From an uncultured Eubacteriales bacterium (GTDB lineage: Bacteria; Bacillota; Clostridia; Oscillospirales; Acutalibacteraceae), in assembly GCA_900316435.1 (NCBI GenBank), contig ONCY01000008.1:1-33095 (forward strand): a stretch of 33,095 bases of DNA. Reading direction: 5' to 3'. The translations under genes and the position numbers were made by a program. Below are positions 2,358-32,344 of the stretch, in pieces; the stretch's first letter is position 1, and each line of letters begins with the position of its first letter. The notes beneath the pieces are model-generated. The model was given only the letters and a program-made list of their open reading frames with translations. It did no database searches and was not told where the DNA came from.

Positions 2358-3086
2358 ATGATACAAAACGAAATCATCTCAATGCTGTTTGAGAAGCAGG
2401 ATATCCCATACCGGGATTTTCAAAGCAAGCTTATCCCGACGGTCGACCGGGACAGCGTTATCGGCGTACGCACTCCCGAGCTTCGCGCCCTTGCAAAGGA
2501 GCTTGCAAAGCGAAGCGATGTGAACAGCTTTTTAAGCGCTCTTCCTCACCGTTATTTTGACGAGAATCAGCTTCACGCCTTTATTATTTCACTTACAAAG
2601 GATTTTGAGCTTTGCGTAAATCAGGTCAATCAGGTCTGTGAGTTTCTTCCTTTCATTGACAACTGGGCGACCTGCGACCAGCTTTCGCCAAAGGTTTTCA
2701 AAAAGCACAAAACGGAGCTGCTGCCGCTTATTATCAATTGGATTGGAAGCGGCAAAACCTACACCGTGCGCTTCGGCGTGGGAATGCTTATGGAGCACTT
2801 CCTTGACGAAGCCTTTGATAAGGAGTATCCGCAAATCGCAGCGCAGATCCGCTCAGACGAATACTATGTAAACATGATGAGGGCGTGGTATTTCGCCACG
2901 GCGCTCGCAAAGCAGTACGAAGCGGTGGTTCCGTTTATCGAAAGCGGCGTGCTTGACGGTTTTACGCACAACAAGGCGATCCAAAAAGCGGTTGAAAGCT
3001 GCCGCATAACGCCCGAGCAAAAGGCGTATCTTAAGACGCTGAAGAAAAAAAGACTGACTGTCGGCAGCGTGACACTTGACCCATGA
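2358..3086 (+). CDS. AlkD-like DNA alkylation repair glycosylase (242 aa)
   Basis: This is a helical HEAT-like repeat protein of the DNA alkylation repair (AlkD) family, which removes N3- and N7-alkylated purines. The conserved stretch DNWATCDQLS gives Trp103 and Asp107, with the W-x3-D spacing of the known active site. Arg138 in TVRFG is the likely third residue. ATG 2358 is preferred over 2331 because AGTGGTG lies 5 nt before it. The last six residues (SVTLDP) and the TGA stop are encoded by the first copy of a 27-bp repeat belonging to the dispersed palindromic element that follows, so the native C-terminus was probably replaced or extended by the element. Confidence 0.87.
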   Translation: MIQNEIISMLFEKQDIPYRDFQSKLIPTVDRDSVIGVRTPELRALAKELAKRSDVNSFLSALPHRYFDENQLHAFIISLTKDFELCVNQVNQVCEFLPFIDNWATCDQLSPKVFKKHKTELLPLIINWIGSGKTYTVRFGVGMLMEHFLDEAFDKEYPQIAAQIRSDEYYVNMMRAWYFATALAKQYEAVVPFIESGVLDGFTHNKAIQKAVESCRITPEQKAYLKTLKKKRLTVGSVTLDP

Positions 3087-3117
3087 CGCGCAAGCGTGAC
3101 GCTTGACCCATGACGCG
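3066..3117 (+). repeat. 27-bp tandem duplication at the end of the AlkD-like gene
   Basis: Positions 3066-3090 and 3093-3117 differ at one base and are spaced 27 bp apart. Each contains GCGTGAC(A/G)CTTGACCCATGACGCG. The first copy encodes the end and the stop codon of the upstream gene. A matching stretch recurs at 9808-9835 in inverted orientation. Confidence 0.85.
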
Positions 3118-3358
3118 AATCATTCATTTGCAATTGACAAACCCTTTGTTCCCGCGAGATATAATGCGCCGTTATACCGAGCTATCCTTACAAACCGATT
3201 TTTCCAAAGGCGGTCGCGTGACGCGACGAACAGTACACGAACCATACAATTTATATATGAGAAAGCTTTTGTTCCCGCGAGATTAGACACGCCGTTGCAG
3301 AAACTTATATATTACATCTTGTTCTCCAAAGGCGGCTTTGGATGGAACGTCACGTTTC
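3066..3358 (+). repeat. Composite palindromic repeat, copy A (two units)
   Basis: Non-coding element between two convergent genes. It contains three core palindromes: CAAGCGTGACGCTTG (3091-3105), GTCGCGTGACGCGAC (3213-3227) and GGAACGTCACGTTTC (3344-3358). Between them are two diverged spacer units, each with the ordered blocks TTCCCGCGAG (3149-3158 and 3272-3281), (G/A)CGCCGTT (3166-3173 and 3289-3296) and CCAAAGGCGG (3204-3213 and 3326-3335). The whole segment is closely similar to the reverse complement of 9557-9835. The left end overlaps the stop of the AlkD-like gene and the right end overlaps the stop of the HAD gene (3357-3359). Confidence 0.85.
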
Positions 3359-4013
3359 ATTCTATCACCGGAAGCTTATATCCCAGCTCACGGGCGGTGT
3401 TTATGTATTCGCGGCAGTCATACTGCTCGGCGTCCGCCTTTTTGCGGAAGCCCCATCCGTAGAGCACGGCGGCAAAGTCAACGCCCGCGTCACGCGCCGC
3501 CTCGGCGTCAACGTAGCTGTCGCCCACAAACAGGGCGTCGGAAGGCTCCACCTCCAAATCAGCACAGACCTTTAAGAGCATATCTGTCTTGGTCATATCG
3601 CGCTCAACGTTTGTCGCGCATACCGTGTCGAACAGGTCGCCTATGTAATTATAAACGCTGAGCATGTTGTTGATAAATTTTTCGTTTTTCTGAGTCACAA
3701 TAGCAAGCTTAAAACCGCTTTCCTTAAGCTTTTTAAGCGAATCGTCGATACCGTCGTAAATAAGAATCATTTCCTCGCCTTTGATCGAATACAGTTTGCT
3801 GTACTGGTTCATGGCGTACTCGATCTCATCCTCTTTCATGCCGTACAGCTTCATAAACCCCTGTTCAAGCGAAACTCCGATAACACCGTATAGCTCGTCA
3901 TGCGAAACGGGAGTATAACCCATTGAAAGAGCGGTGGTGTTCATGCAGTAAAGGATTCCGGGCGCGGTATTAGCAATTGTTCCGTCAAATCCGATTATTA
4001 TAAGTTTTTTCAT
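3357..4013 (-). CDS. HAD-superfamily protein lacking the motif I nucleophile (218 aa)
   Basis: This is a haloacid dehalogenase-like protein of the phosphoglycolate phosphatase/beta-phosphoglucomutase type with a helical cap (about residues 17-85). Motif II Thr107 (IVTQK), motif III lysine (Lys142 or Lys148) and motif IV GDSYVDA (Asp165, Asp169) are present. Motif I should read DxDGT; here it reads GFDGT, so the position of the nucleophilic Asp is Gly8 while the acid/base Asp10 remains. The codon is GGA, two changes from Asp. It is therefore probably not a standard phosphatase. Start ATG 4013 is chosen because a promoter (-10 at 4046-4051) excludes the ATG at 4055. The stop codon overlaps repeat copy A. 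Confidence 0.85.
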   Translation of the reverse strand: MKKLIIIGFDGTIANTAPGILYCMNTTALSMGYTPVSHDELYGVIGVSLEQGFMKLYGMKEDEIEYAMNQYSKLYSIKGEEMILIYDGIDDSLKKLKESGFKLAIVTQKNEKFINNMLSVYNYIGDLFDTVCATNVERDMTKTDMLLKVCADLEVEPSDALFVGDSYVDAEAARDAGVDFAAVLYGWGFRKKADAEQYDCREYINTARELGYKLPVIE

Positions 4014-4045
4014 ATAATCACAGCCTGTCTGCACTTGATACCTTA

Positions 4046-4073
4046 AGTATATCATAAAAAAAGAGAATTACAA
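4046..4073 (-). promoter_or_regulatory. Promoter for the HAD gene
   Basis: On the minus strand the -35 TTGTAA (4068-4073) and -10 TATACT (4046-4051) are 16 bp apart. Transcription would begin near 4039, leaving a leader of about 25 nt before ATG 4013. Confidence 0.55.
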
Positions 4074-4084
4074 TAGTTTTTCGA

Positions 4085-4113
4085 TTGACAATTATATGAC
4101 AAAGGGTTAAAAT
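4085..4113 (+). promoter_or_regulatory. Promoter for the Wzy-like operon
   Basis: TTGACA (4085-4090) and TAAAAT (4108-4113) with a 17-bp spacer lie 33 nt before ATG 4147. This promoter is divergent from, and close to, the HAD gene promoter. Confidence 0.65.
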
Positions 4114-4146
4114 TATATTTACTAAATACTTGTGAAAGGCTGTTAT

Positions 4147-5853
4147 ATGGGCAATTCAAAAAACAAACAAAAAAACGTTAAACCGCTCTATGAGCGGTAC
4201 ACGCTGACAAACATAATCTGCAACTATTATCTGGTAATTGTGTTTACGTTATTTCCGCTGTATGTAAACATATCCTTTAACGAAACATTTCCGTTCATAA
4301 GCTTTGCGCACGGATTCAGTTCGATACGCCACCAAAAGTACTACTTCTTTTTGGTAATAACGGCTCTGGCGGTGATAGCAGAGATAATGCTGCTTGTCAC
4401 AAAATCCTCAAAGGACGTCAACAAGCCCAATCCTTCGGCGCGAACCTTTTTGAATATAATGAGCTTTACCGACTGGGCTGTTATAGCGTTTGTGCTCACC
4501 TGCGCGATTTCAACCGCGTTTTCCGAGCATATCGATATGGCGGTCACGGGCGAAACGAGCATCATAGGCCATCTGCACGGGCGCAACAACGGAATGATAC
4601 TTATGCTGTTTTACGCGGCGGTATATTTCCTTATTACGCGGTGCTTCCGCTTTAAGGAGTATGTATTCATAGCGATGGCGGCTGCAAGCGGAATAATTTA
4701 CCTTCTTGCGGTGCTGAACGGCTTTTATCTTGACCCTCTCGGAATACTTGAAACGTTTAAGGGCAGCTCCGACCAGAGCGACATACGCTTCTATAACGAG
4801 TTTATGACGACCATCGGAAACAAAAACATGTTTTCAAGCGTAATATGCGTAACGCTTCCGGTTATTATTTCCATGTTTGTGTACACCAAAAAGCTATGGT
4901 GCAGGTCGGTGTATCTTTCGATCACCGTGCTCGGTTCAATGGCGGCGGTGATTTGTGACAGCGATTCCGTCGTGCTTGGCTTAGGAGCTTTTATAATGGT
5001 ATTTACAACGGCTTATTCGCGCGATCCTCAAAAGCTACGCAAATTTATGTTGGCGATCACCGTTATGTTCCTGAGCGTGAAGCTGCTTTGGCTAATCTCG
5101 CTTATAAGCGGCGAACACTACAAGGAACTGAGCGCTATCCCGTATAAGATAATGCTTTCAAACACCACGAACTTTGTGATCGCGGCTTTGTCTGTAATTA
5201 CAGCGGCGCTGTATATTGTAACGTTAAAGACAAAAATCACCCGGTTCCCCTTGGCTGTGCCGATCGCTTTGGGCTCACTGTTCTGCATAGCGGTACTGGC
5301 AGGACTGGGCACTATCATTTACTTCACCTTTATTAACACCACTGCCGATTTGGGCGAAAATGAGCGCGTTCTGCGGTATTCCGACGCTTGGGGCACACAT
5401 CGCGGCTTTATGTGGAACAAGTCGCTTGAAGCATTCGGGGGCTTTAATGTTTTCAATAAGCTTTTCGGAACGGGACCCGAAACACTGTTCTATACCTTCT
5501 GGCCGTATTTTGCGGAGCTTGCGGAACGCTTCGGCGACGGCTCAACGGACGCCGCCCACAACGAGTATATCAACTACCTGCTCAACATCGGCATTTTGGG
5601 GCTTTTGTCATACCTTACATTTACCGGAAGCGCCCTTGTCAGCGCCTTCCGCGCGGCAAAAAAGAACCCCGTAGCGCTTGTTTTCGCCTCGGCTGTTGTA
5701 GCTTATTTGGCTCAGGCTGTTGTAAATATCGCCCTGCCTATAGCCACTCCCCTCTTCATCGTATTTGTTTCACTTTGCGAGGCGGCTAAAAGACAAACGA
5801 AAAACTCTGTTACCAATGTGGAAAAGGAGAGTAAGTATGAAAAACAACGTTAA
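4147..5853 (+). CDS. O-antigen ligase/polymerase (Wzy-type) membrane protein (568 aa)
   Basis: The protein has about twelve hydrophobic segments and near its C-terminus a large extracytoplasmic loop. That loop and the segment after it read as a Wzy_C domain: RGFMWNKSLEAF, LFGTGPE and AHNEYINYLLNIGILGLLSYL. The family polymerises or transfers undecaprenyl-linked glycans on the outer membrane face; in a Gram-positive a role in capsule, exopolysaccharide or teichoic-type polymer assembly is likely. ATG 4147 with AAAGG 8 nt upstream is preferred to a GTG at 4132. The gene overlaps the next one by 17 nt. No glycosyltransferases are adjacent, so the polymer is not identified. Confidence 0.82.
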   Translation: MGNSKNKQKNVKPLYERYTLTNIICNYYLVIVFTLFPLYVNISFNETFPFISFAHGFSSIRHQKYYFFLVITALAVIAEIMLLVTKSSKDVNKPNPSARTFLNIMSFTDWAVIAFVLTCAISTAFSEHIDMAVTGETSIIGHLHGRNNGMILMLFYAAVYFLITRCFRFKEYVFIAMAAASGIIYLLAVLNGFYLDPLGILETFKGSSDQSDIRFYNEFMTTIGNKNMFSSVICVTLPVIISMFVYTKKLWCRSVYLSITVLGSMAAVICDSDSVVLGLGAFIMVFTTAYSRDPQKLRKFMLAITVMFLSVKLLWLISLISGEHYKELSAIPYKIMLSNTTNFVIAALSVITAALYIVTLKTKITRFPLAVPIALGSLFCIAVLAGLGTIIYFTFINTTADLGENERVLRYSDAWGTHRGFMWNKSLEAFGGFNVFNKLFGTGPETLFYTFWPYFAELAERFGDGSTDAAHNEYINYLLNIGILGLLSYLTFTGSALVSAFRAAKKNPVALVFASAVVAYLAQAVVNIALPIATPLFIVFVSLCEAAKRQTKNSVTNVEKESKYEKQR

Positions 5854-6262
5854 GGATTCCTCAAAGCTGTTCTTGATAGCCTGCATCTTTATGATCTTAT
5901 GCGGCGCGTTTTCCGCTGTGGGCGGTGTAAAAACCGTACTGTTTGCCTACGGCGACACAAACCACTATATACGGCTGCTGTCCATGCTGCAGACCTTTTC
6001 GGTAGTCAGTCTGCTTTGCGCTATCGTACAGATCATTGCGGGTTTCTTCGGTCTGCGAAACCCCGACGACGCGTCGTCCTGCCTAATGATATGCGCAATC
6101 GATTTTCCGGTTTCCGCCGTTGCGTACCTTATGGTTATCCTAACCTCGGGGCTCAGCATAAACATTTTTTTACCTTTGTTTATTTCGTCAGCGGCAGCGC
6201 ATGTGCTGTACATTATCGGTGCGTTGCTCAACAAAAAAGGAAACGATGAACCGCGGGAATAG
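5837..6262 (+). CDS. Small four-helix membrane protein (141 aa)
   Basis: No family recognised. Hydrophobic segments lie at about residues 11-30, 47-73, 84-104 and 107-130, with short charged ends. The start ATG 5837 has AAAGGAGAG upstream and lies inside the 3' end of the Wzy-type gene (17-nt overlap). This suggests translational coupling and a shared function, perhaps as an accessory to the polymerase or ligase. A bidirectional terminator follows. Confidence 0.7.
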   Translation: MKNNVKDSSKLFLIACIFMILCGAFSAVGGVKTVLFAYGDTNHYIRLLSMLQTFSVVSLLCAIVQIIAGFFGLRNPDDASSCLMICAIDFPVSAVAYLMVILTSGLSINIFLPLFISSAAAHVLYIIGALLNKKGNDEPRE

Positions 6263-6324
6263 TGCTCATTTCAGATAAAGATACAGCGGTGCCGTCGATT
6301 ATACGGTATTGCCTAAAAAAAGCA

Positions 6325-6361
6325 GGCTCAAATCTCTCAGTGAGTTTTGAGCCAGTTTTTT
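6325..6361. terminator. Bidirectional terminator between convergent operons
   Basis: The arms GGCTCAAA (6325-6332) and TTTGAGCC (6346-6353) form a stem with an inner CTC/GAG pairing. A T-run (6356-6361) follows on the plus strand and an A-run (6314-6321) serves as the T-run on the minus strand. It serves the Wzy operon and nrdG. Confidence 0.8.
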
Positions 6362-6902
6362 ACAATTCTATTCTTCCGCTTTTGGGTACATACTCCGTAA
6401 GCTCTCCGCTTTCAAGTGACTTCTGCACGTCGATTATCCTCTGGTTTGAGGAGCCCCTGAACTGCAGGCTGATGTTGTACAGTTCCTGCACAAATTCGCC
6501 GTCTACGAGCACATCAATAAGCGAGAGCATTTCATCTGTGTATTCACACCTTGCACGGCTTTCGCTCAGAAGCTCTGTATCGAACAAATAGCCCGTGTAG
6601 CACCATATTGTCTTATCCGGGAAACGTTCCTTTACGCGGCGCAGAAACGGCAGCAGCACCGCCTGATTAGCAGGCTCGAACGGCTCGCCGCCAAGCAGCG
6701 ACAACCCGTTTATGTAGTCAGGCTCAAGCTCGGAAATAATTTTGTCCTCTGTTTCGGCGGTAAAAGGCTCGCCGTAGTCAAAGCTCCAGGTTTCGGGGTT
6801 AAAGCAGTTTTTGCAGTGGTGGGTGCAGCCCGAAACAAACAGCGACACGCGCACGCCCTCGCCGTTTGCAATATCAAAATTCTTAATCTCTCCGTAATTC
6901 AT
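6360..6902 (-). CDS. nrdG: Anaerobic ribonucleotide reductase activating protein NrdG (180 aa)
   Basis: This radical SAM enzyme installs the glycyl radical on NrdD. Cys26, Cys30 and Cys33 (CTHHCKNC) bind the 4Fe-4S cluster, and the N-terminal NFDIANGEGVR is typical of NrdG. LLGGEPF (about residues 69-75) is the GGE-type S-adenosylmethionine-contacting motif. At 180 residues it has the normal length. It lies 140 nt downstream of nrdD on the same strand, separated by a GC-rich hairpin that may lower its expression relative to nrdD. The ribosome site is TGAGG. Confidence 0.95.
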   Translation of the reverse strand: MNYGEIKNFDIANGEGVRVSLFVSGCTHHCKNCFNPETWSFDYGEPFTAETEDKIISELEPDYINGLSLLGGEPFEPANQAVLLPFLRRVKERFPDKTIWCYTGYLFDTELLSESRARCEYTDEMLSLIDVLVDGEFVQELYNISLQFRGSSNQRIIDVQKSLESGELTEYVPKSGRIEL

Positions 6903-6932
6903 AACAAAACCTCAAAATATTTTTGCAAAACA

Positions 6933-6960
6933 CGGCGGCGGAGCCAAAGCCCCGCCGCCG
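6933..6960 (-). terminator. GC-rich hairpin between nrdD and nrdG
   Basis: The arms CGGCGGCGGAGC (6933-6944) and GCCCCGCCGCCG (6949-6960) make a 12-bp stem, with one G-U pair in the minus-strand transcript, and a CAAA/TTTG loop. It is followed leftward by TGTTTTG, a poor T-tract. It is therefore likely a leaky terminator or an mRNA-stabilising hairpin that sets the nrdD:nrdG ratio. Confidence 0.6.
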
Positions 6961-7042
6961 CGCCCCGCGGTCGACACGGGAAACACACAATCAAAAACAC
7001 ACAATCATATTTTCAATTGCCAAATTCAAATTTATAACGTTA

Positions 7043-9556: not shown

Positions 9557-9835
9557 GGAACGTGACGTTCCATCCGGCGCGCCTTTGGACAACATGATAT
9601 AACAAATACCTTTCTGCAACGGCGCATCATAAATCGCGGGAATGGAAGCTTTCTTATATATTAATTGTATGATTCGTGTACTGTTCGTCGCGTCACGCGA
9701 CCGCCTTTGGATAAATCGGTTTATAGCAAGCCTCGGTATAACGGCGCTTTATATCTCGCGGGAACGGAAGGTTTGTATTGCGCAAAAGTCTGATTCGCGA
9801 ATTGGGTCAAGCGTCACGCTTGCGCGTCACGCGAC
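9557..9835 (-). repeat. Composite palindromic repeat, copy B (two units, inverted relative to copy A)
   Basis: Read on the minus strand this element follows copy A almost block for block. It has the palindromes CGCGTGACGCG and CAAGCGTGACGCTTG (9823-9833 and 9808-9822), GTCGCGTGACGCGAC (9687-9701) and GGAACGTGACGTTCC (9557-9571), and two spacers with CCCGCGA, GCGCCGTT and CCAAAGGCG blocks. Even the inner spacer sequence GAACAGTACACGAA is shared with copy A. It overlaps the 3' end of queH and supplies its stop codon. Confidence 0.85.
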
Positions 9836-10433
9836 TGAAAACGCAGCCGCAGTAGTTTTGCCTGTAAAGCTCATACTCGCGCGAAAGCTCGATGCTGCGC
9901 TTGTAGCCCTCTTTCTTCTTAAAATCGCTGTACAGCCAGCTTACGCCGTATTTTTCGCCCATCTCTGCCCCTATTTTATTAAGCAGAGCCGCGTTTTTGA
10001 GCGGACTTATCGTTAGCGTGGTCGTAAAATAGTCAAAGCCCTGCTCCTTCGCCTTCTTAGCGCTCGCCTCAAGCCTCAGCTTAAAGCACTCCTTACACCG
10101 CAGACCGCCCTCGGGCTCATTCTCCAAACCGCGCACAGCCCCAAAAAAATCCTGAGGCTCATACTCGCTTTCGGTCAGCTTTACAGGATGCTTAAATTCC
10201 TTTAAGGAAATATATCTCTTTTCCTCACTCAAACGATATTCGTATTCTTCTTTTATAGAAATATTCGGGTTGTAGTAATAGATCGTGATGTCAAAATACT
10301 GCGATAGATATTCAAGGCAGTAGCTCGAGCACGGCGCGCAGCAAACATGCAAAAGCAGCCTCGGCACCTCGCCCTTTGCCTGATGCGTTTCGATAACGCG
10401 GTCAAGCTCTTTTTGATAATTCATCTTATTCAT
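9807..10433 (-). CDS. queH: Epoxyqueuosine reductase QueH (208 aa)
   Basis: QueH carries out the last step of queuosine biosynthesis, reducing epoxyqueuosine in tRNA. The metal and cluster ligands are visible: Cys31, Cys32 and Cys35 (HVCCAPC), Cys113 and Cys116 (CKEC), and Cys195 and Cys197 (YCGC). The length is normal. The start ATG overlaps the stop of the upstream HAD gene in ATGA, indicating coupling; Met4 is an alternative start. The last nine residues (SRVTRKRDA) and the TGA come from repeat copy B, so the C-terminus after YCGCVF is element-derived and unusually basic. Confidence 0.93.
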   Translation of the reverse strand: MNKMNYQKELDRVIETHQAKGEVPRLLLHVCCAPCSSYCLEYLSQYFDITIYYYNPNISIKEEYEYRLSEEKRYISLKEFKHPVKLTESEYEPQDFFGAVRGLENEPEGGLRCKECFKLRLEASAKKAKEQGFDYFTTTLTISPLKNAALLNKIGAEMGEKYGVSWLYSDFKKKEGYKRSIELSREYELYRQNYCGCVFSRVTRKRDA

Positions 10434-11886: not shown

Positions 11887-14163
11887 TTATTTGTTAGCAG
11901 GAATGATTCTGCCGTCTGCAAGAAGCTTGTTGCCTGCTTCGCCTGTACCCTCAGTATACTGAGCAAGGTACTTCTGAACGCAAGTTACGTCGAGAATAGA
12001 GATTCTGCCGTCGCGGTTAACGTCGCCGAGCTTCTCGGCTACTTCGTCAAACTTAACGAGCTCAATACCCCTCTGCTGGATCAGAGTAGCGTCGTCGATT
12101 GTAACATTTCCGTCGCCGTTTACGTCGCCGATGATGCCTACTTCTTCAACAGGAGCGTACTCAATGGTAATTGTGAACTTAGCCCCTTCCTTGGTAATAA
12201 AGTCGAACTCTCTGAGGTCGAGCTGAGCCTTAACTGTGCATACATCGTCTGTATCGAAGGCGATGTTGTCGCCGTTGTAAACAGCGTCTGTAGCAACGCC
12301 GCTCTCAGCGAAAGCGCCGCCGAAGTTGTGCGTCCATGCGCCGTCGATAGCAAACTTGATCTGACGCTCAAAGCCGTCGGGAACATTAGCAAACTCGATT
12401 TCCCATACGCCCTCTGCAACTTCTGTCATCTCGTTGGATGCAAAAGCGGGATCCCAAGCTGCGCCGTTGAGCCATGTGCCTTCGCCGTTACCTACAGCGT
12501 ATACGGTGCCAACTTCAAATACAACATCAGCTACGATGTCGCCGCTTACGGATACAACATATCCGTCCTCGGTAGGAGCAGCGGTTACTGTGAATGTACC
12601 TGCGCCTGTAAGAGCAAAGGTAGCGTTGTTGCCGGTCTCGTCGCCGTACCAGTCTGCGCCGTTCTTAACAGCCTTGAGCTGAACTACGTCAAATGCCTTG
12701 TCAACGGTGTAATCCTTGGTGTAGGTGCCGTCGTCGTTAGCGGTCATGAGGTTAGCCTCGTTTGTAGCGTCCCAAGCTGTGCCGAAGATGTCGGCGGGTG
12801 TACCTGCTACAACGAAAGTATCGGCAGGAACGGGCTCGTCTTCTGTTTTGAAGGTAGCGGTAGCAACCAGCTTGCCGTCTGCGAGTTCAACCTTATCGAA
12901 CGCCTTATCGTTAAGAGCAGCAGTAGTCGCGTCGGTGAACTGATAGCCATCGGCAGCGGTAAATGTTACTGTAAGAGTGTACTCGGTGTTGTAAGCCGCA
13001 ATCTCATCAGCGGGAGACCAAACAGCCTCGGAAGAATAGTTACCGCCTACTGCGCCTGCAACTGTGGGCAGAGCCTCAGTAGCTTTTACTTCGCCGTCCA
13101 TTGCAGCCGCAACGCTGTCAATGTCAACAACAGCGGGCTCGGTGGGAAGATTCAGTCTTTCCTTTACAAGGTCAAAGTCAGGATACTTTGTAACCTTTTC
13201 CTTCTCAACGCCTGTAGCCTCATCGACCTCTGTGGTGGTGATAGAAGTGTATCTGTAGCAATCCTTGAGGGTGCCGTCATCCTTTAAGTCGTCAGCGCCG
13301 TCAACATGTACATACTGAACGCCTTCATCATGCTTTGCGCCGAACTTCTCAACGTACAGATCATAAACATCCTGAGCGGAAGCGCCGAACTTCTCAATAA
13401 CGGGCTTAATCTTTGCCCAGGTAAATGAGGGTTCGTTTACGGGGTTGGGAAGATACTTCTGGAGCGCGTTAGCCATTTCCAGAGCGTCGGGAGAGTTGCC
13501 CGCCTTTGCGCCGTCGATATAAGCGCAGAGGGTAGATACCTTTCTAACGGACTGGCCTTCGGCGTCGTTGGTGCCGAGGTAGTCGATCTTCTGAGAGTTA
13601 GCGGTATTCTCACGAACGGTAGCCTTTGAAGCGGGCTCTACGATGTGATATGTAGTACCAAGGGAATTGGTATTGAAGTACATATCGCAGGTCTGATAAC
13701 CGTCAGTGTTCGGCTGAAGCAGGTCTGTCTGACCGGCATTCGCCTTTGTTGAGAACAGAACGCCGTAGTCCGCGCCTTCCTCTAACTCGCCCTTGCCGGA
13801 CTCGGTGATGTCGAAGTAGTAAAGGCTGTCGCCTTTAGCGTCCTTGTACATCGAGGTCGAAGGAGCCTCCCAAGAGCTTTCCTTTACTTCGCCTTTGTTT
13901 CCGTAATAAGCATAGTAGTTACAGAAAACGTTGCAGGTATGCTTTTTAGCGTTGTATTTAACACTCGAGTTAGCGCCCCAAGCACTTGATGGGAACTGGA
14001 AAAATACAAGCTGATGTCCCGCGGCTTTTCTCTCGGCAGCAGTCATAACGCCTGTAGAATCGGCGTCAACCTGCGCAGCGGAAGCAGCTACCATGCTAAA
14101 GCACGAAGTTGCCATCAAGCCTGAAAGTACCAGACTGATGACCTTTGATGATTTTCTCATCAT
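11887..14163 (-). CDS. Secreted dockerin protein with X25/SusE-like starch-binding modules (758 aa)
   Basis: A signal peptide (about 1-30, ending AASAA) indicates export. Residues 50-180 form an aromatic-rich domain (VFFQFPSSAWG, NYYAYYGNK) that I do not recognise. Residues 355-440 look like a beta-sandwich repeat (TLTVTFTAADGYQFT). Two related modules at about 448-545 and 553-668 (GTAWDATNEANLM, GAAWDPAFASNEM) resemble the X25 modules of amylopullulanases and of R. bromii amylosome proteins. A type I dockerin with two repeats (GDVNGDGNVTIDD from 679; GDVNRDGRISILD from 713) ends the protein. There is no catalytic domain, so a starch-adherence role docked to a cohesin is likely. It is monocistronic, with its own promoter and terminator. 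Confidence 0.85.
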   Translation of the reverse strand: MMRKSSKVISLVLSGLMATSCFSMVAASAAQVDADSTGVMTAAERKAAGHQLVFFQFPSSAWGANSSVKYNAKKHTCNVFCNYYAYYGNKGEVKESSWEAPSTSMYKDAKGDSLYYFDITESGKGELEEGADYGVLFSTKANAGQTDLLQPNTDGYQTCDMYFNTNSLGTTYHIVEPASKATVRENTANSQKIDYLGTNDAEGQSVRKVSTLCAYIDGAKAGNSPDALEMANALQKYLPNPVNEPSFTWAKIKPVIEKFGASAQDVYDLYVEKFGAKHDEGVQYVHVDGADDLKDDGTLKDCYRYTSITTTEVDEATGVEKEKVTKYPDFDLVKERLNLPTEPAVVDIDSVAAAMDGEVKATEALPTVAGAVGGNYSSEAVWSPADEIAAYNTEYTLTVTFTAADGYQFTDATTAALNDKAFDKVELADGKLVATATFKTEDEPVPADTFVVAGTPADIFGTAWDATNEANLMTANDDGTYTKDYTVDKAFDVVQLKAVKNGADWYGDETGNNATFALTGAGTFTVTAAPTEDGYVVSVSGDIVADVVFEVGTVYAVGNGEGTWLNGAAWDPAFASNEMTEVAEGVWEIEFANVPDGFERQIKFAIDGAWTHNFGGAFAESGVATDAVYNGDNIAFDTDDVCTVKAQLDLREFDFITKEGAKFTITIEYAPVEEVGIIGDVNGDGNVTIDDATLIQQRGIELVKFDEVAEKLGDVNRDGRISILDVTCVQKYLAQYTEGTGEAGNKLLADGRIIPANK

Positions 14164-21083: not shown

Positions 21084-23405
21084 TCAGTCGATTGTGTAGA
21101 GGTATCTTCCCTTATCGTTTAACTGATCAATAGCGCGGTAGGTGTGCGACTTTCCGTCAAACGCTATCTTATCGGTCTGGACGGTTCCGTTGTCGAAGAT
21201 GACATACTCAACATAATCGGGAATCTCTGCCGAATAGGCGTTGTGTCCGTCAATATCGGCGATCTGAGTCATCGCGGTACCCGGCCATGAAAGCGGATAG
21301 TTGCCGCTTCCGTAGTAATAAACGTTGATAGTACCCTCCCAGTCAAGGGTGTTTACAAATGTGGCGATAAGCTTATCTTCGGGATCGGGATCGGGCTCTG
21401 GGTCGGGGTCTTCATGAGTATATCCCGCCTTTATTCTTGCCAGAGCGGTAACGTCGGTGATAGTCAGTTTGTCGTCCGGGTTGACGTTGGCTATTTCATA
21501 CTGAAGCGCGTCGAGGTCGATAAACTCGGCAAGATAGCGCTGTATCTCGGTGATGTCGTTGATGTCGAAAACGCCGCTGCGGTCAACGTCATATTTAACC
21601 TTTGAGCCGTTGTAATCGGCGTACATCTGATTTGAAAGCCATGCCGCGCGGGTCGTCATCCAGTCGCAGGCGTAGTTGAACATATTCGTAAAGTTCGCGC
21701 TGTAGCGTGTAGATGATGAAACCTCGGTGTACGTTCCCTTGTAGAAGTCAAAGCTCGCCTTCTTTAATGAACTGTGCGAGGCTATCCAGCTGCCTGTGTT
21801 CAAGAGCCAGCCGCTCTTGTAGTTCATCGCGGCGCTGTCCGCGATATAGCCGTAGTATTTTTTAGCGCTGTAAAGCTCGTCCGATACATAGGGATTTTCG
21901 GTTTTGCCGCTGAAATAATTGATAGCGGGCATAAAGTCCTCAAACCAGACCTGAGCCGCGGTTGCCTGAACTTCTTTGTTGCGGGCGAGGTTGTTGATGA
22001 TGTTATAGGACATGGTCTCGTTGCTGCTTTTGCCCTTGTAGCGGCACCACCAGCCTGTGGGTTTCTCATAGTCGCTTACGCCCATGCTGTTCAGGTCGCG
22101 GCTAACGCCCACAGCGTTGCCCAGCGAGTTATCGTAGTCCCAAACGGGCGAACCAAAGAACTTGTAGCTGCCGTTTTCGTCGGGCTTATAGGTAAGGAAG
22201 GTGCTTGAAACGCCCGAATCCCAGTTTTTGCCGAGCTCGTTGATCAGGTAGAGCTTTGCGGCAGAGTCAAGGTCAATCAAATCTGCTATTGAGGTTGAGC
22301 TGTTGCGGATAGCCGTGCGGCAGGTCGAAAGCAGCTTGTTGAATTTATCGGCCACATAGGTCTTAACCTCGTCGTAGCCGGGCTTTCCTGGGTCGATTTC
22401 GGGGGACTTAATTGTGATTTTAATACCGCCGTCGCAGGTTACATAATAATCGCCGTCGCCCGCGCTTGCGTCAACCTCGGCAATAAACGAGAAGTCGTCC
22501 TTGATTGTGCCGTCCTCGTTGAGGTAATCGGTGTCGGAAACGTCGGTTACAAGGCTGCCCGCCTCTACCTTTTCGGTCATCTGATAAGAGCCCCAGTAGA
22601 AGCCGTTTACATAAAAGTCAACATAGCGCGAGTCGGAGGCGTAGGGCATTCCCACAGCGTCCGAAAGGTCGTAAAGAATGCGGTTGCGCGAGAGCGAGTC
22701 GTCCTGATAGTTTGGCAGGATAGAATACTTTTTATTCTTTTCCATGCCCGCTATCGACACTTTCTTATCGTAGGTGATGTTATAGCCCTTTTTCGGCTTT
22801 GCCCACGAGGTATTGCCGCGTCCCTTGATTTTCTTGATGGTAGTGTTGTCGATTTTGCCGTCAGCGCCAACAACCGCGCCAGCAGCGGTCGCCTTGTTTT
22901 CCTTGTCGGCGTTGAGGTATGACATAAGGTCGGTTCCGTTGCCATCGGCGTCGGGATTGTTTACATAAACCGCAGCTTCGGCGTTTGATTTCATATACTT
23001 TAAGGTATATGTACTTCCGCTTGCCGTAACGCTGTAGCTCTGCGACGCGCTGTACGGCACGGTTTCGGTTTCGCCAGCTCCGATCGTAACGCCGTTAAGC
23101 GTAACCGCTGACGAAAAGCCGTTGTAAACATCAACCTGATCCGTATCGGCTGATGTGGGTAGGAAAAAGTATTTCTCGCTTGGATTTGAAACGCTCATTC
23201 TCTCGTCATGAATGCTCTGCCACGCCTGCCATGCCTCGGTGTCGCCTGAGCCTGTGACCGCGTGAGCGTACAGTGCCTGCTGAGAAGCAAATGCCGAGGG
23301 CTTAGCCGCAGCCTCGGGCTCGGTTTCCGCCGCGCTTACCGCGGATACCGACAAACAGCCGAGCGCCATAATTGCCGAAAGAATAATTGCCGCCGCTTTT
23401 TTCAT
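21084..23405 (-). CDS. Secreted CotH-kinase-like protein with dockerin and CBM26-like module (773 aa)
   Basis: A signal peptide (about 1-25) leads to a beta-rich region (80-140) and then a CotH kinase domain (about 140-590): KIKGRGNTSW at 192-201, YILP-type SILPNYQDDSLSRNR near 228-242, NELGKNWD near 389-396 and PVWDYDNSLG at 420-429 with metal-binding Asp423/Asp425. A dockerin-like pair of EF-hand repeats follows (YDVDRSGVFDINDITEIQRYL at 605-625 and NPDDKLTITDVTAL at 642-655). A Pro/Asp linker (665-676) leads to a CBM26-like starch-binding domain (about 680-756: WEGTINVYYY, WPGTAMT, FDNGTVQTDKI). ATG 23405 is preferred over 23450 because AGGCAGG lies 8 nt upstream. CotH domains phosphorylate proteins; here the enzyme is exported and could be recruited to a starch-bound complex. 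Confidence 0.85.
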   Translation of the reverse strand: MKKAAAIILSAIMALGCLSVSAVSAAETEPEAAAKPSAFASQQALYAHAVTGSGDTEAWQAWQSIHDERMSVSNPSEKYFFLPTSADTDQVDVYNGFSSAVTLNGVTIGAGETETVPYSASQSYSVTASGSTYTLKYMKSNAEAAVYVNNPDADGNGTDLMSYLNADKENKATAAGAVVGADGKIDNTTIKKIKGRGNTSWAKPKKGYNITYDKKVSIAGMEKNKKYSILPNYQDDSLSRNRILYDLSDAVGMPYASDSRYVDFYVNGFYWGSYQMTEKVEAGSLVTDVSDTDYLNEDGTIKDDFSFIAEVDASAGDGDYYVTCDGGIKITIKSPEIDPGKPGYDEVKTYVADKFNKLLSTCRTAIRNSSTSIADLIDLDSAAKLYLINELGKNWDSGVSSTFLTYKPDENGSYKFFGSPVWDYDNSLGNAVGVSRDLNSMGVSDYEKPTGWWCRYKGKSSNETMSYNIINNLARNKEVQATAAQVWFEDFMPAINYFSGKTENPYVSDELYSAKKYYGYIADSAAMNYKSGWLLNTGSWIASHSSLKKASFDFYKGTYTEVSSSTRYSANFTNMFNYACDWMTTRAAWLSNQMYADYNGSKVKYDVDRSGVFDINDITEIQRYLAEFIDLDALQYEIANVNPDDKLTITDVTALARIKAGYTHEDPDPEPDPDPEDKLIATFVNTLDWEGTINVYYYGSGNYPLSWPGTAMTQIADIDGHNAYSAEIPDYVEYVIFDNGTVQTDKIAFDGKSHTYRAIDQLNDKGRYLYTID

Positions 23406-23448
23406 TGGAATTACCTGCCTTTCAATTATATTTTTTTTGCTTGGCTTC

Positions 23449-23477
23449 ATTCTATCACACGGTTTTCACATACGCAA
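23449..23477 (-). promoter_or_regulatory. Promoter of the CotH/dockerin gene
   Basis: On the minus strand TTGCGT (23472-23477) and TAGAAT (23449-23454) are 17 bp apart. Confidence 0.5.
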
Positions 23478-26198: not shown

Positions 26199-26227
26199 TT
26201 GAATTATCCCGATAGATATGCTATACT
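26199..26227 (+). promoter_or_regulatory. Promoter of gltX
   Basis: TTGAAT (26199-26204) and TATACT (26222-26227) are 17 bp apart. The -10 lies inside the palindrome at 26216-26245. Confidence 0.6.
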
Positions 26228-26245
26228 TTATTTTGTATAGCATAT
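26216..26245 (+). promoter_or_regulatory. Palindrome overlapping the gltX promoter (operator or terminator)
   Basis: The perfect 11-nt arms ATATGCTATAC (26216-26226) and GTATAGCATAT (26235-26245) are followed by TTGTTTTT. The position after the pdxY operon suggests a terminator, while the overlap with the -10 and start region of gltX suggests an operator. It may be both. Confidence 0.6.
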
Positions 26246-26265
26246 TTGTTTTTGGAGGGAATTTT

Positions 26266-27717: not shown

Positions 27718-27752
27718 TTCATTATAAATACTACAGATAAAGGACTATGATT

Positions 27753-29435
<1,683 letters not shown>

Positions 29436-29448
29436 TATCAATCACAAC

Positions 29449-29479
29449 CGGCGCAGACCTTTTAAAAACGTCTACGCCG
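29449..29479 (+). terminator. Hairpin after glnS
   Basis: The arms CGGCGCAGAC (29449-29458) and GTCTACGCCG (29470-29479) pair with one G-U. Only a short T-tract (TTGCTTT) follows, so termination may be weak. Confidence 0.6.
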
Positions 29480-29497
29480 TTGCTTTATGAATATTTA

Positions 29498-29538
29498 TTC
29501 ACAATTATGAAACAACAATTATAATATACTTATAGTAT
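29498..29538 (+). promoter_or_regulatory. Promoter and operator-like site of the XRE regulator
   Basis: TTCACA (29498-29503) and TATAAT (29520-29525) are 16 bp apart. Just after the -10 lies ATACTTATAGTAT (29526-29538), with inverted arms ATACT/AGTAT. A near-identical site precedes the SDR gene. Confidence 0.65.
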
Positions 29539-29672
29539 CTTCTATTATTCTTATAAATCGTAGGCCGCATAAACGCTGTACCTTTGGTCTACATTTCGTT
29601 ACTATAGTTGATTGAAGAAAAATCATATTTCCTTTAATATATAATTAACAAATATGATAGGCAGGAATGAAT

Positions 29673-30011
29673 ATGGATAGAGCATCATTATCAAGACTAA
29701 TAGGGGCAAATATCCGCAAATACAGAATTCAAAAAGATGTAAGCCAGGAGCACCTTGCGCTGGAATCGGGCATTCATCCCGCTTATATAAGCAAACTCGA
29801 GCGCGGTGAAAAGTGCCCCACCATTGACACGCTTTACAGACTTGCAAAAGCCTTGGGCATACCGGTTTACAAGCTCATCGATATCGACGGCGATATGGAT
29901 AACATTTCCGATACCGCGTACAAAATCCAAAAGTCGCTCAGCGAGCTTAATATCGAACAGCAAAACCGCGTAGCAGATTTGATTGACGAAATCGTAGACC
30001 TTATAAAGTAA
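29673..30011 (+). CDS. XRE-family transcriptional regulator (112 aa)
   Basis: An N-terminal Cro/C1-type helix-turn-helix (about residues 5-62) contains the usual VSQEHLALESGIHPAYISKLERGEK pattern, broken here only for naming. A short acidic helical C-terminus (about 70-112) may serve dimerisation. No sensor domain is visible. ATG 29673 is preferred to ATG 29667 because AGGA lies 6 nt before it. The operator-like site at its own promoter implies autoregulation, and the same site before the next gene suggests the SDR gene is its target. A strong terminator overlaps the stop codon. Confidence 0.88.
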   Translation: MDRASLSRLIGANIRKYRIQKDVSQEHLALESGIHPAYISKLERGEKCPTIDTLYRLAKALGIPVYKLIDIDGDMDNISDTAYKIQKSLSELNIEQQNRVADLIDEIVDLIK

Positions 30012-30038
30012 CGCTCTGAAAAGAGCGTTTTCTTTTTT
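30010..30038 (+). terminator. Terminator of the XRE regulator gene
   Basis: The arms AACGCTCT (30010-30017) and AGAGCGTT (30022-30029) with a GAAA loop are followed by TTCTTTTTTT. The stem overlaps the TAA stop, so the SDR gene needs its own promoter. Confidence 0.9.
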
Positions 30039-30062
30039 TCTCTTTTATTTTTTTAAGATTTG

Positions 30063-30104
30063 TGCTATACTTTTAGTGCCAAAAATAAACAATACCTATA
30101 GTAT
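30063..30104 (+). promoter_or_regulatory. Extended -10 promoter and operator-like site of the SDR gene
   Basis: TGCTATACT (30063-30071) is an extended -10. Downstream, ATACCTATAGTAT (30092-30104) matches 12 of 13 bases of the site at the XRE promoter. It lies between the predicted start and the ribosome site GGAGG, a position suited to roadblock repression. Confidence 0.6.
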
Positions 30105-30122
30105 TAGCCGGAGGCGTTTATC

Positions 30123-30857
30123 ATGACAGTTCTTGTTACAGGCGGCGCGGGCGGAATAGGCTCTGCCGTCTGCCGTTCATTTTCCGAAAAGGGCTATGAC
30201 GTTATAATCCATTACTACAGCGGCAAGGAACGCGCCGACCTGCTCTGTAAAGAAATAAATAATAAATACGGCACAAACGCGCATGCTGCATACTGCGACG
30301 TTTCGGATCCCTCATCCGTGCGGGCGATGTTTGACAAAATCGACAGCGCCGAAGAACGAGTCGACGTACTTATAAACAACGCGGGTGCCGCTCAGCAAAA
30401 GCTGTTCACGGATATTACCGATGAAGAGTGGAAAAATATGCGCGGCGTAAACCTTGACGGCACATTCTACTGCTGCCGTGAGGCGCTTAAAAGATACATG
30501 CTGCCCTCTCACAGCGGCGTAATACTTAATATAAGCTCCATGTGGGGCCAAACAGGCGCGTCCTGCGAGGTTCACTACAGCGCGGCAAAAGCGGGCGTAA
30601 TAGGGCTTACAAAGGCTCTGGCAAAGGAAGTGGGGCTGTCGGGCGTGCGCGTAAACTGCATCGCCCCCGGCGTTGTTGTGACCGATATGATGAAAGGCTT
30701 TGACGAGCAGACGCTTAATGAGCTGAAACAGGAAACCCCGCTTAACCGTCTGGGTACACCGGAGGACATAGCCGAAGCGGCGCTGTTTTTGTGCAGCGAT
30801 AGGGCAAGCTTTATAACGGGACAGATTCTCGGCGTCAACGGAGGATTTGTTATTTAA
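30123..30857 (+). CDS. Short-chain dehydrogenase/reductase, FabG-like (244 aa)
   Basis: This is a classical SDR. The NAD(P)-binding TGGAGGIG lies at 6-13, NNAG at 85-88, and the catalytic set is Asn110, Ser139, Tyr152 and Lys156 (YSAAK). The C-terminal TGQILGVNGGFVI is typical of the FabG group. At 244 residues it is full length. It could be a 3-oxoacyl-ACP reductase, but it stands outside a fatty-acid gene cluster, so another alcohol or ketone substrate is possible. ATG 30123 follows GGAGG. The gene converges on rplL, with a repeat element between. Confidence 0.9.
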   Translation: MTVLVTGGAGGIGSAVCRSFSEKGYDVIIHYYSGKERADLLCKEINNKYGTNAHAAYCDVSDPSSVRAMFDKIDSAEERVDVLINNAGAAQQKLFTDITDEEWKNMRGVNLDGTFYCCREALKRYMLPSHSGVILNISSMWGQTGASCEVHYSAAKAGVIGLTKALAKEVGLSGVRVNCIAPGVVVTDMMKGFDEQTLNELKQETPLNRLGTPEDIAEAALFLCSDRASFITGQILGVNGGFVI

Positions 30858-30991
30858 TTATGAATTCGGCCGCCACGCGGCATGAAGCGCGCCTTTGTAT
30901 AGGTCGGTTTCGGAGGAAAGATCGGCATAACGGCGCAACAAATGAATGCGAAATGCGGAATTAATATCCTCACTTTATACTAAATCAGAAA

Positions 30992-31017
30992 GGGACGTGT
31001 GAAAACTCACACGTCCC
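30992..31017. terminator. Perfect 11-bp hairpin inside the TIR element
   Basis: The arms GGGACGTGTGA (30992-31002) and TCACACGTCCC (31007-31017) flank AAAC. T-rich stretches lie on both sides (TTCTGATTT leftward, CTTATGTTTT rightward), so it may terminate both the SDR gene and the rplJL transcript. Confidence 0.7.
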
Positions 31018-31050
31018 CTTATGTTTTAAAAATTTTTAGATGCGCCGTTG

Positions 31051-31196
31051 GTCGCGTGACGCGACATTCAATACGCGAATTACATATTTTGCAGTAAACA
31101 AAGTTTATGTTCCCGCGAGTTAAGTTGCGCCGTTGAAGAAACGTTTCCATTTTATGATGTTTTCCAAAGGCGTATTTGGATGGAACGTCACGTTCC
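31051..31196 (+). repeat. Repeat-family unit, copy C
   Basis: The unit is bounded by GTCGCGTGACGCGAC (31051-31065) and GGAACGTCACGTTCC (31182-31196). Between them are TTCCCGCGAG, GCGCCGTT and CCAAAGGCG in the same order as in copies A and B. Confidence 0.85.
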
Positions 31197-31223
31197 CGCG
31201 CTTCCTGCCGCGTGGCGGCCGAA

Positions 31224-31598
31224 TTATTTGAGCTCTACCTCAGCGCCTGCGCCTTCAAGCTTCTCCTTCATAGCCTCAGCGTCTTCCTTAGAAGCCTGCT
31301 CCTTAACAGCCTTGGGAGCGCCGTCAACGAGAGACTTAGCTTCCTTCAGACCAAGACCAGTAATCTCACGAACAGCCTTGATAACAGCAATCTTGTTGCC
31401 GCCTGCGCTCTTCAGGATTACGTCAAACTCGGTCTGCTCTGCAGCAGCGGGAGCGTCAGCAGCAGGACCTGCAACTGCAACAGCAGCGGCAGCGGATACA
31501 CCAAACTCATCCTCTACAGCGTGAACAAGCTCAGAAAGCTCAAGAACTGTGAGGCCTTTTAATTCTTCAATAATAGCAGTAATTTTCTCAGATGCCAT
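31224..31598 (-). CDS. rplL: Ribosomal protein L7/L12 (124 aa)
   Basis: This is the acidic stalk protein that recruits translation GTPases. The N-terminal dimerisation helices (1-35), the Ala/Pro hinge (about 36-53) and the C-terminal domain ([31 protein letters not shown]) are complete. GGAGGTAA precedes ATG 31598. It follows rplJ by 54 nt. Its stop lies within the right arm of the TIR element, and the next gene downstream is convergent rather than rpoB. Confidence 0.98.
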
Positions 31599-31652
31599 TG
31601 TTATTTACCTCCAATAAATTAGTAATGTTTAAATTAATAGATCTGCAAAAGC

Positions 31653-32234
31653 TTATGCTTCTGCGGGAGCCTCTGCCTCAGCGGGAGCCGCCTCCTCTGC
31701 AGGAGCTTCTTCGCCGGCTTTCTTAGCGAGGCAGGCATCAAACCCGCCCTCGTCAACTACAGCCTGCATAACGCGTGCAAACGCCGCAATGGGAGCCTGG
31801 AACGCGCCGAGAACGTTCGCAAGAAGAACGTCTCTGGTCGGGAGCTTGGAAAGAGCTGTGATGGTGTCCATATCCACAACAGCGCCGTCAAGATAACCTG
31901 ACTTAACCTTAAAGTTTTCGTGATCCTTTGCGTACTTGCAGAGGATACGCGCTGCGGCAGCATATTCGCTGTCGCTTGTAGCAAGAGCTGTGGTGCCCTC
32001 AAGAACGGGCTTAAGTTCCTCAAGACCTGCTTCGTCACATGCGCGAGCGAGGAGCGTGTTCTTAACAACGGTGTACTTAACGTCGTTTTCACGCAGCTCC
32101 TTTCTCAGCTTGGTGTCGTCCTCGGTGTTGATACCCTTGTACTCGACAACAAGACCTGTAACGGAGTTTTTAAGTCTTTCGGAAAGCTCTGCAACGATTG
32201 CTTTCTTTTGCTCTAAAACACTCTGACTTGGCAA
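31653..32234 (-). CDS. rplJ: Ribosomal protein L10 (193 aa, TTG start)
   Basis: L10 anchors L7/L12 dimers to the 50S stalk. The N-terminal MPSQSVLEQKKAIVAEL and the central GTTALA region are typical, and the C-terminal Ala/Glu-rich tail is long. The start is the TTG at 32232-32234, with GGAGGTG (32241-32247) 6 nt upstream. A GTG at 32243 overlaps that ribosome site, so it is unlikely. An L10 leader precedes the gene, and a piece of the dispersed repeat lies between leader and start. Confidence 0.96.
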   Translation of the reverse strand: MPSQSVLEQKKAIVAELSERLKNSVTGLVVEYKGINTEDDTKLRKELRENDVKYTVVKNTLLARACDEAGLEELKPVLEGTTALATSDSEYAAAARILCKYAKDHENFKVKSGYLDGAVVDMDTITALSKLPTRDVLLANVLGAFQAPIAAFARVMQAVVDEGGFDACLAKKAGEEAPAEEAAPAEAEAPAEA

Positions 32235-32240
32235 AAATTT

Positions 32241-32247
32241 CACCTCC
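32241..32247 (-). promoter_or_regulatory. Ribosome binding site that fixes the rplJ TTG start
   Basis: GGAGGTG is 6 nt upstream of TTG 32234. The longer GTG-started reading would begin inside this site. Confidence 0.8.
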
Positions 32248-32272
32248 GAAAAATGAAATATAATTGCAGTCC

Positions 32273-32344
32273 AAAACGTGACGTTTTATCCGCTCCGCCT
32301 TTGGAAAAGCTTAATATATCAATAAGCATCCCGAGCGGCGGGAC
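32273..32344 (-). repeat. Repeat-family unit, partial copy D, in the rplJ leader
   Basis: AAAACGTGACGTTTT (32273-32287) is a palindrome of the family with its own arm sequence. It is followed leftward-to-rightward by CCGCCTTTGG (32295-32304) and a CCCGAGCGGCGGGAC block near 32330-32344. It lies in the mRNA leader between the L10-leader terminator and the rplJ ribosome site. Confidence 0.7.

What the first reader, a model, noticed from the sequence alone, without database searches (positions are those of the whole stretch)
3066..32344. Dispersed BIME-like repeat family with covarying palindromes
Eight or more short palindromes share the 7-nt core CGT(G/C)ACG but have different outer arms that remain self-complementary: CAAGCGT/ACGCTTG, GTCGCGT/ACGCGAC, GGAACGT/ACGTTCC and AAAACGT/ACGTTTT. 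Positions: 3091, 3213, 3344, 9557, 9687, 9808, 31051, 31182, 32273. Compensatory change in arms points to selection for a hairpin or for recognition by a protein. They alternate with spacers holding fixed blocks (TTCCCGCGAG, GCGCCGTT, CCAAAGGCGG). I do not know a described family with this layout; REP/BIME elements are the nearest analogy.
Basis: partly seen in the sequence, partly recalled or inferred. Interest (0 to 1): 0.85.

Follow-up and report, generated by a model that had tools for sequence, protein, structure and literature searches.

The report
REP-like hairpin repeats in Ruminococcus
Scattered between genes of Ruminococcus-like gut bacteria are dozens of small DNA hairpins that keep folding the same way although their letters change, and they look like the passengers of an unidentified enzyme that moves DNA pieces around the genome.

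Summary
All nine palindromes are where reported; eight are perfect, the one at 3344 has one broken pair. They belong to a dispersed family: 64 BLAST pieces in the 2.09 Mb host assembly, 69 in a syntenic congener. A covariance model finds units in 100 of 150 sampled genomes of the genus but 6 of 295 across the order, host included in both.

Each unit is a 6-bp hairpin with a TGA loop, a tail AYCC (GGRT before the hairpin on the other strand) and a second stem-loop. Two units facing inward make an element of about 143-149 bp; extra units form mosaic arrays. The CGTGACG "core" is not fixed: loop and pairing are conserved, stem letters vary. One tag base follows stem pair 4 (121 of 129 units).

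Presence/absence at two orthologous loci, extragenic placement and under-representation between divergent genes point to REP/REPIN-like non-autonomous mobile DNA. It fails the tests for described REP families: the tag differs, no RAYT transposase was found in the host, and RAYT presence tracks it weakly at best. The mobilising enzyme is unknown and movement was not shown. Novelty: new variant of a known kind.

The parts
3091..3161 (+). Left-end unit: hairpin CAAGCG-TGA-CGCTTG (3091-3105) + ACCC tail + stem-loop with foot ACGCG/CCCGCG
   Evidence: covariance model R1, 27.7 bits; sequence
3162..3227 (-). Inner part: stem-loop with foot GGCG/CGCC running up to hairpin GTCGCG-TGA-CGCGAC on the + strand (3213-3227)
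   Evidence: R1, 38.1 bits
3285..3358 (-). Right-end unit: on the + strand GGAT-tagged hairpin GGAACG-TCA-CGTTTC (second pair broken) + stem-loop 2
   Evidence: R1, 72.5 bits
9557..9629 (+). Right-end unit of the second element (element lies on the - strand): hairpin GGAACG-TGA-CGTTCC + ATCC + stem-loop 2
   Evidence: R1, 74.1 bits
9687..9751 (+). Inner part: hairpin GTCGCG-TCA-CGCGAC (9687-9701) + stem-loop
   Evidence: R1, 38.5 bits
9752..9822 (-). Left-end unit: hairpin CAAGCG-TGA-CGCTTG (9808-9822) + stem-loop 1; a partial extra hairpin core follows at 9825-9831
   Evidence: R1, 33 bits
30877..30940 (+). Degenerate unit (end hairpin and stem-loop), inverted relative to the next element
   Evidence: R1, 23.2 bits; inverted repeats I4 and I8
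31051..31122 (+). Left-end unit: hairpin GTCGCG-TGA-CGCGAC + stem-loop 1
   Evidence: R1, 25.1 bits
31123..31196 (-). Right-end unit: hairpin GGAACG-TGA-CGTTCC + ATCC + stem-loop 2
   Evidence: R1, 75.2 bits
32273..32345 (+). Solo right-end unit with a changed stem, AAAACG-TGA-CGTTTT, beside the L10 leader
   Evidence: R1, 59.4 bits; L10_leader at 32361-32499

Best explanation
These are non-autonomous mobile repeats that work like REP/REPIN elements. Each unit is a short hairpin (6-bp stem, TGA loop) with a four-base tag at its foot (AYCC; GGRT before the hairpin on the other strand) and a second stem-loop. Two inward-facing units form the basic element of about 143-149 bp, and arrays arise by gain, loss and exchange of units. 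Inferred: an HUH-type or similar single-strand recombinase, supplied in trans and not identified, recognises the folded hairpin by shape, loop and tag rather than by stem letters. That would explain stems that change while staying paired, and a tag base that follows stem pair 4. Shown here: anatomy, covariation, tag-stem coupling, inverted pairs, presence/absence differences between two species, unit turnover, extragenic placement. Not shown: any movement, any enzyme, any single-strand intermediate.
For: Slot test blind to the hairpin: 83/98 and 85/109 perfect stems. Pair counts on 147 distinct units: 95.7% of cells paired against 83.6% in shuffles, covariation score 0.299 against 0.099, 0 of 500 shuffles as high; slid controls pair 29-55% (the alignment was fitted to the structure). 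The pair next to the foot of the second stem-loop, not used to select sequences, is Watson-Crick in 63 of 71 against 26 expected, with C-G 31, G-C 25, A-T 4, T-A 3. The tag base matches stem pair 4 in 121 of 129 units (A-T with T 85, G-C with C 36); mutual information is 0.66-0.69 for pair 4 and at most 0.18 for other stem positions, some of them nearer the tag. Left and right ends of the window elements fit one model in opposite orientation, left ends weakly (25-33 bits, right ends 59-75). 6 of 25 inward pairs in loci L118-L213 lie at 143-146 nt. One species has the element and the other not at two orthologous loci: L030 filled against L105, and L273 (G006) with a 149-nt inverted pair against L037. 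At four orthologous loci compared, unit number or hairpin kind differs. 146 of 153 element clusters are not enclosed by an ORF; divergent 16 of 122 against 49 of 180 background gaps, convergent 33 of 122 against 26 of 180.
Against: No transposase is linked: no RAYT was found in the host although at least 32 units score there (32 is the scoring cap). Across 150 genomes U>=1 and RAYT are not associated (47 both, 53 U only, 18 RAYT only, 32 neither, p=0.22); U>=5 is weakly associated (p=0.013), U>=10 and U>=20 are not (p=0.55, 0.33). No target-site duplication was seen at the two junction pairs, and 87 outer flanks are only AT-rich with a final purine. At L030/L105 the empty allele carries four extra bases and the element's left hairpin is missing, so deletion in G006 is not excluded; at L037/L273 the insertion is 293 nt and contains other sequence. 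Covariation in the second stem does not extend beyond one pair: the next pairs outward are Watson-Crick no more often than expected (28 against 29, 16 against 15, 25 against 30). Stem mismatches show no strand preference (G-T 7, A-C 6), so which strand folds is open. Stem position 2/14 is also associated with the tag base, less strongly (0.17-0.18, 0 of 500 shuffles).
Confidence: 0.66

Rival explanations
1. The repeats are kept for a role in RNA: hairpins in mRNA 3' regions that stabilise messages or stop readthrough. Their spread is an old process and compensatory change reflects selection on the transcript.
For: Bias to convergent gaps and away from divergent ones, and nearer to gene 3' ends (median 101 nt, 139 flanks) than 5' ends (147 nt, 105 flanks). 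A two-helix unit with covariation across a long loop. Wobble pairs occur in the second stem-loop.
Against: Hairpin mismatches are as often A-C as G-T (6 and 7), whereas selection on one RNA strand should favour G-U; numbers are small. L and R ends are inverted versions of one unit, which an RNA role does not need. No Rfam family matches window 3050-3400 at E<=5. The placement pattern is also reported for REPs (PMC3733652 abstract).
Confidence: 0.17
2. Ordinary MITEs: terminal inverted repeats cut as double-stranded DNA by a DDE transposase, with palindromes kept perfect by template switching inside the hairpin and not by selection.
For: Inverted ends, short size, presence/absence. Template switching can perfect near-palindromes (recalled, not from a call).
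Against: No target-site duplication at the two junction pairs seen. The pair at the foot of the second stem-loop, about 40 nt apart, also covaries. Template switching in the hairpin does not explain why a tag base outside it follows stem pair 4.
Confidence: 0.1
3. Genuine REPs of a present or former RAYT, the enzyme having been lost from some genomes while the repeats remain.
For: Tag + perfect stem + small loop is the REP plan. RAYTs occur in 65 of 150 sampled genomes of the genus; genomes with at least 5 units have them somewhat more often (34 of 61 against 31 of 89, p=0.013). Loss of REPtrons in species with REPs is reported (PMC3733652, passages).
Against: Tag GGRT in place of GT[AG]G. Four of five RAYT loci read sit with GTAGGGG-tagged repeats. 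1 of 26 transposase loci scanned carried a unit, 0.9 kb from the RAYT. In the fetched unit loci only one locus (seen twice, as L058 and L183) held RAYT ORFs. No association at U>=1, 10 or 20.
Confidence: 0.17

Closest known systems
REP / BIME with TnpA-REP (RAYT), GTAG-tagged
   Same: Short extragenic hairpin with a tetranucleotide at the foot, perfect stem and small loop in some groups, mosaic arrays, high copy, convergent/tandem gaps (PMC3733652 abstract; PMC8266576 and PMC6006769 passages)
   Different: Tag is GGRT not GT[AG]G; stem letters vary widely within one genome; a second stem-loop is part of each unit; no RAYT found in the host and at best weak association across the genus
REPIN (definition recalled; PMC3116915 seen in a search listing only)
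   Same: Two hairpin units facing inward as the unit, no genes of its own
   Different: About 143-149 bp with structured inner stem-loops; non-GTAG tag; no identified partner enzyme
CGTC-tagged REPs (PMC3733652)
   Same: REP-like repeats without a known dedicated transposase, with an unpaired tail at the other end
   Different: No CGTC tag here; those are described mainly from alpha-Proteobacteria, and the words Firmicutes, Clostrid and Ruminococcus do not occur in that paper's main text
BOX elements of Streptococcus (recalled)
   Same: Modular left end, repeated middle units, right end; mosaic and structured
   Different: No sequence comparison was made
IS200/IS605 ends (PMC6006769 passages)
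   Same: Subterminal hairpin with a guide tetranucleotide 5' to its foot
   Different: No coding element with these ends was found in the loci looked at; the host's one Y1 transposase locus lacks them

Membership tests
REP (GTAG family) | GTAG or GTGG tag 0-2 nt 5' of the hairpin | tested here: not met
   Tag is GGAT/GGGT (AYCC on the other strand) in the 71 aligned units, which were selected to have AYCC; host left ends with GTCGCG stems carry GGAC-type tails instead. Definition from PMC6006769 (passages)
REP (GTAG family) | Hairpin with fully paired basal stem of 7-20 nt and loop of 2-5 nt | tested here: inconclusive
   6 pairs + 3-nt loop, one pair short of that rule; a functional 5-bp REP is reported in PMC8266576 (passage)
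REP (GTAG family) | Many extragenic copies, few between divergent genes | tested here: met
REP (GTAG family) | Associated RAYT in the genome or flanked by the repeats | tested here: not met
   None in the host at E<=1e-10; across genomes weak at U>=5 only
REPIN | Two units in inverted orientation at a set spacing | tested here: met
   6 of 25 inward pairs at 143-146 nt; 11 at 172-284 nt, arrays included; 8 at 1.8 kb or more. Some come from one species and one array
REPIN | Moves as a unit dependent on RAYT | not testable with these tools
   presence/absence at two loci only
CGTC-tagged REP | CGTC tag 5' of the hairpin | tested here: not met
   the bases at the hairpin foot are GGRT/AYCC; outer flanks show no CGTC
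IS200/IS605 element | TnpA gene between the hairpin ends | tested here: not met
   No hairpin in the host Y1 locus; 1 of 26 transposase loci has a unit, not flanking. 8 wide inward pairs were not followed up
Known RNA family (Rfam 15) | Match to a covariance model | tested here: not met
   Window at gathering scores: two tRNAs and the L10 leader only; window 3050-3400 at E<=5: none
Phage or plasmid sequence | Homologues in phage, plasmid or viral collections | tested here: not met
   One exact right-end pattern: 0 in viral contigs; one 292-nt query: no match in plasmids or phages at 1e-5

The most novel reading that the evidence does not exclude
A separate class of REP-like DNA in Clostridia, moved by an unrecognised single-strand recombinase that reads a hairpin by shape (any paired stem, TGA loop) and checks it through contact between the GGRT tag and stem pair 4, so that the tag base and the stem change together.
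Probability: 0.3. Interest if true: 0.8.

Novelty: new variant of a known kind. Interest (0 to 1): 0.57.

Why it matters
REP elements are textbook bacterial repeats, but how their enzymes recognise them has been worked out for a few GTAG systems (PMC8266576, passages). Here is a large natural data set (units in 100 of 150 sampled genomes of one genus) in which stem letters, tag and second stem vary and covary, so recognition rules can be read from sequence and tested. It also asks which enzyme moves hairpins that no RAYT evidently accompanies, the gap that PMC3733652 notes for CGTC repeats.

Tried and rejected
RAYT as partner: sought with Pfam PF01797 in the host and in 120 genomes of the genus, with a five-sequence RAYT profile in 150, with a local profile over 9085 ORFs of loci L001-L213 without L067, and by looking for units in 26 transposase loci (20 Y1, 5 RAYT, 1 host). 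Rejected as the evident partner, not excluded. The association test used lists copied by hand and assumes that both 'genus, n=150' draws are the same genomes; part of the genomes without matches is not listed, so this was not checked.

Autonomous copy: 4 inward pairs lie at 1.8-3.1 kb and 4 farther apart; none was followed up.

Target motif: only AT-richness and a terminal purine in 87 external ends of 218.

Strand of folding by G-T against A-C mismatches: no preference.

Empty sites: most of the host stretch C83:1400-11900 has no counterpart in G006, and L022 is filled in both; L009 has no flank match there. Of eleven gaps printed, several are coding or other indels without units.

Data dropped before counts: 8 loci in unrelated taxa, judged chance hits (L119, L127, L141, L149, L172, L181, L188, L192; L119 and L192 nevertheless have perfect stems); units with more than one stem mismatch; overlapping loci by number, where 24 of 153 clusters lacked a flanking ORF on one side; 9 of 107 left modules. 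A1 holds 71 of the 129 units, chosen for variety. One search covered 100 sources and A2 aligned the best 150 of 188 matches. One search excluded most self-pairing loops other than TGA/TCA; the fair recount is (78 of 117 hairpins in 37 host loci).

Literature: six searches. No paper describing this family appeared in them; the library lacks most subscription journals.
Full report
Observation. The nine palindromes are present; eight are perfect and the one at 3344 has a broken second pair (one search lists the eight and one unrelated hairpin). The core occurs 14 times against 3.62 expected and TTCCCGCGA 5 times against 0.39. Two of the three arrays are inverted copies of one three-hairpin element and the third copies two of its hairpins, so the window alone gives little independent evidence of compensatory change.

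Copies. A BLAST search of the host assembly (2.09 Mb, 161 contigs, 97.29% complete, 6.83% contaminated) with window 3060-3380 gave 64 pieces at E<=1. In a syntenic congener, G006, it gave 69 at E<=0.01. Profiles built without the hairpin found 52 left and 55 right modules in the fetched host loci and 55 and 54 in those of G006.

Anatomy. Read from the outer end inward, each unit is: hairpin of 6 pairs with loop TGA; tail AYCC (GGRT before the hairpin on the other strand); 4-6 free bases; stem-loop with foot CGCC/GGCG, or CGCG/CGCG in the host's left ends. Left ends of the window elements match the same covariance model in opposite orientation, at lower scores than right ends (25-33 against 59-75 bits). 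The element is two inward units: 6 of 25 inward pairs in loci L118-L213 lie at 143-146 nt, 11 at 172-284 and 8 beyond 1.8 kb. Further units are strung in tandem. Slots in G000 and G006 also hold other hairpins: TGCC loops (GTCGT/ACGAC, CCCGT/ACGGG, GTCAT/ATGAC, GTCGC/GCGAC) on the left and GCCGC-GTG-GCGGC on the right.

Covariation. In slots found by flanks alone, 83 of 98 left and 85 of 109 right hold perfect stems of at least 5 bp (shuffled 3.1% and 5.6%; split by genome). Model-aligned units (147 distinct) pair in 95.7% of cells, 0 of 500 shuffles as high, and sliding destroys it; that alignment leans to the structure. The pair beside the stem-loop foot was not used in selection: 63 of 71 Watson-Crick against 26 expected, all four pair types, after right-justifying the gap beside it; the next pairs outward are not above expectation. 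Stem mismatches are G-T 7, A-C 6, other 6, in 15 imperfect hairpins of 134 complete ones.

Tag-stem coupling. The variable tag base follows stem pair 4: 85 A-T with T and 36 G-C with C in 129 units, 8 exceptions. Mutual information is 0.66-0.69, against at most 0.18 for other stem positions, some of them nearer to the tag; in 81 units outside the host pair the values are 0.67-0.72 and at most 0.10. Position 2/14 also exceeds its shuffles, so some linkage by descent exists. Outer triplets GCA and GAA occur with both states, so common descent of whole hairpins does not explain the coupling simply. A base triple or shared protein contact is inference.

Dynamics. At four orthologous loci the two species differ in unit number or hairpin kind while flanks stay similar. 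At L030/L105 the host has 112 nt, ending exactly at a right hairpin, where G006 has four bases. At L037/L273 G006 has a 293-nt insertion that holds a 149-nt inverted pair and that the host lacks; other sequence accompanies it, so the exact ends there are less certain. Either difference could be loss in one species.

Placement. Of 153 element clusters 7 lie inside ORFs and 24 lacked a flanking ORF on one side; the other 122 are 33 convergent, 73 tandem, 16 divergent, against 26, 105 and 49 of 180 background gaps (p 0.008 for convergent, 0.004 for divergent; a crude ORF caller was used).

Distribution. None in viral contigs for one exact pattern, nor in phages or plasmids for one 292-nt query.

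Enzyme. The host has one Y1 transposase match, which I read as IS200 type, without such hairpins in its 3.4 kb locus, and no RAYT at E<=1e-10. RAYTs occur in 65 of 150 genomes; two were checked against NCBIfam and best match REP_Tyr_transpos, below its cut-off (64 and 65.5 against 80 bits). Four of the five loci read carry GTAGGGG repeats. Units and RAYTs are not associated at thresholds 1, 10 and 20, and weakly at 5; 9 of 20 genomes with at least 20 units lack a RAYT.

Comparison. PMC3733652 (outline with abstract, and passages), PMC8266576 (passages) and PMC6006769 (passages) define REPs by GT[AG]G or CGTC tags and describe group 3 enzymes that act on perfect stems with small loops. The plan here is the same; the tag is not. 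It works like a REP/REPIN, but it is not filed as a member of a described REP family.

Verdict. A real, genus-wide, REP-like family with a different tag, structurally constrained but variable stems and no known enzyme: a new variant of a known kind. On re-checking the calls I lowered confidence in the best explanation slightly (0.68 to 0.66) and interest to 0.57, and raised the RAYT rival to 0.17, because the weak association at U>=5 and the limits of the empty sites deserve weight.

Noticed in passing
window 9807-10433 (-) and 2331-3086 (+): The stop codons of the queH gene and of a DNA alkylation repair gene lie inside element sequence, so insertion has apparently supplied the C-terminal codons.
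   Followed up: no
L234:2128-2616, L236:3453-3974, L237:1674-2306, L238:2505-3053: RAYT genes in congeners carry or neighbour repeats that begin GTAGGGG and continue with varying palindromic arms, apparently a second, canonical GTAG-tagged REP family. In G006 one such gene sits between two tRNA-synthetase-like genes where the window has none (27715/27724).
   Followed up: partly
L003, L007, L037 near 1680; window about 30951: AATTCCGNATTCCGCATT-type short repeats lie next to several elements and may form another dispersed family.
   Followed up: no
window 32361-32499 (-): L10 leader RNA directly beside a solo unit at 32273-32345; in G006 that unit is shortened.
   Followed up: no
window 11890-14163 (-) and 21087-23450 (-): A dockerin type I protein with an X25 domain, and a CotH-family protein with a starch-binding CBM26: possibly cellulosome or amylosome parts.
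   Followed up: no
L045, L272: GGGT-tagged hairpins also occur singly, beside a tRNA gene by its sequence, in a congener and in a more distant species.
   Followed up: no
L119 (Verrucomicrobiales MAG), L192: Two of the hits set aside as chance have perfect stems with the right tail; contamination, transfer or chance was not resolved.
   Followed up: no
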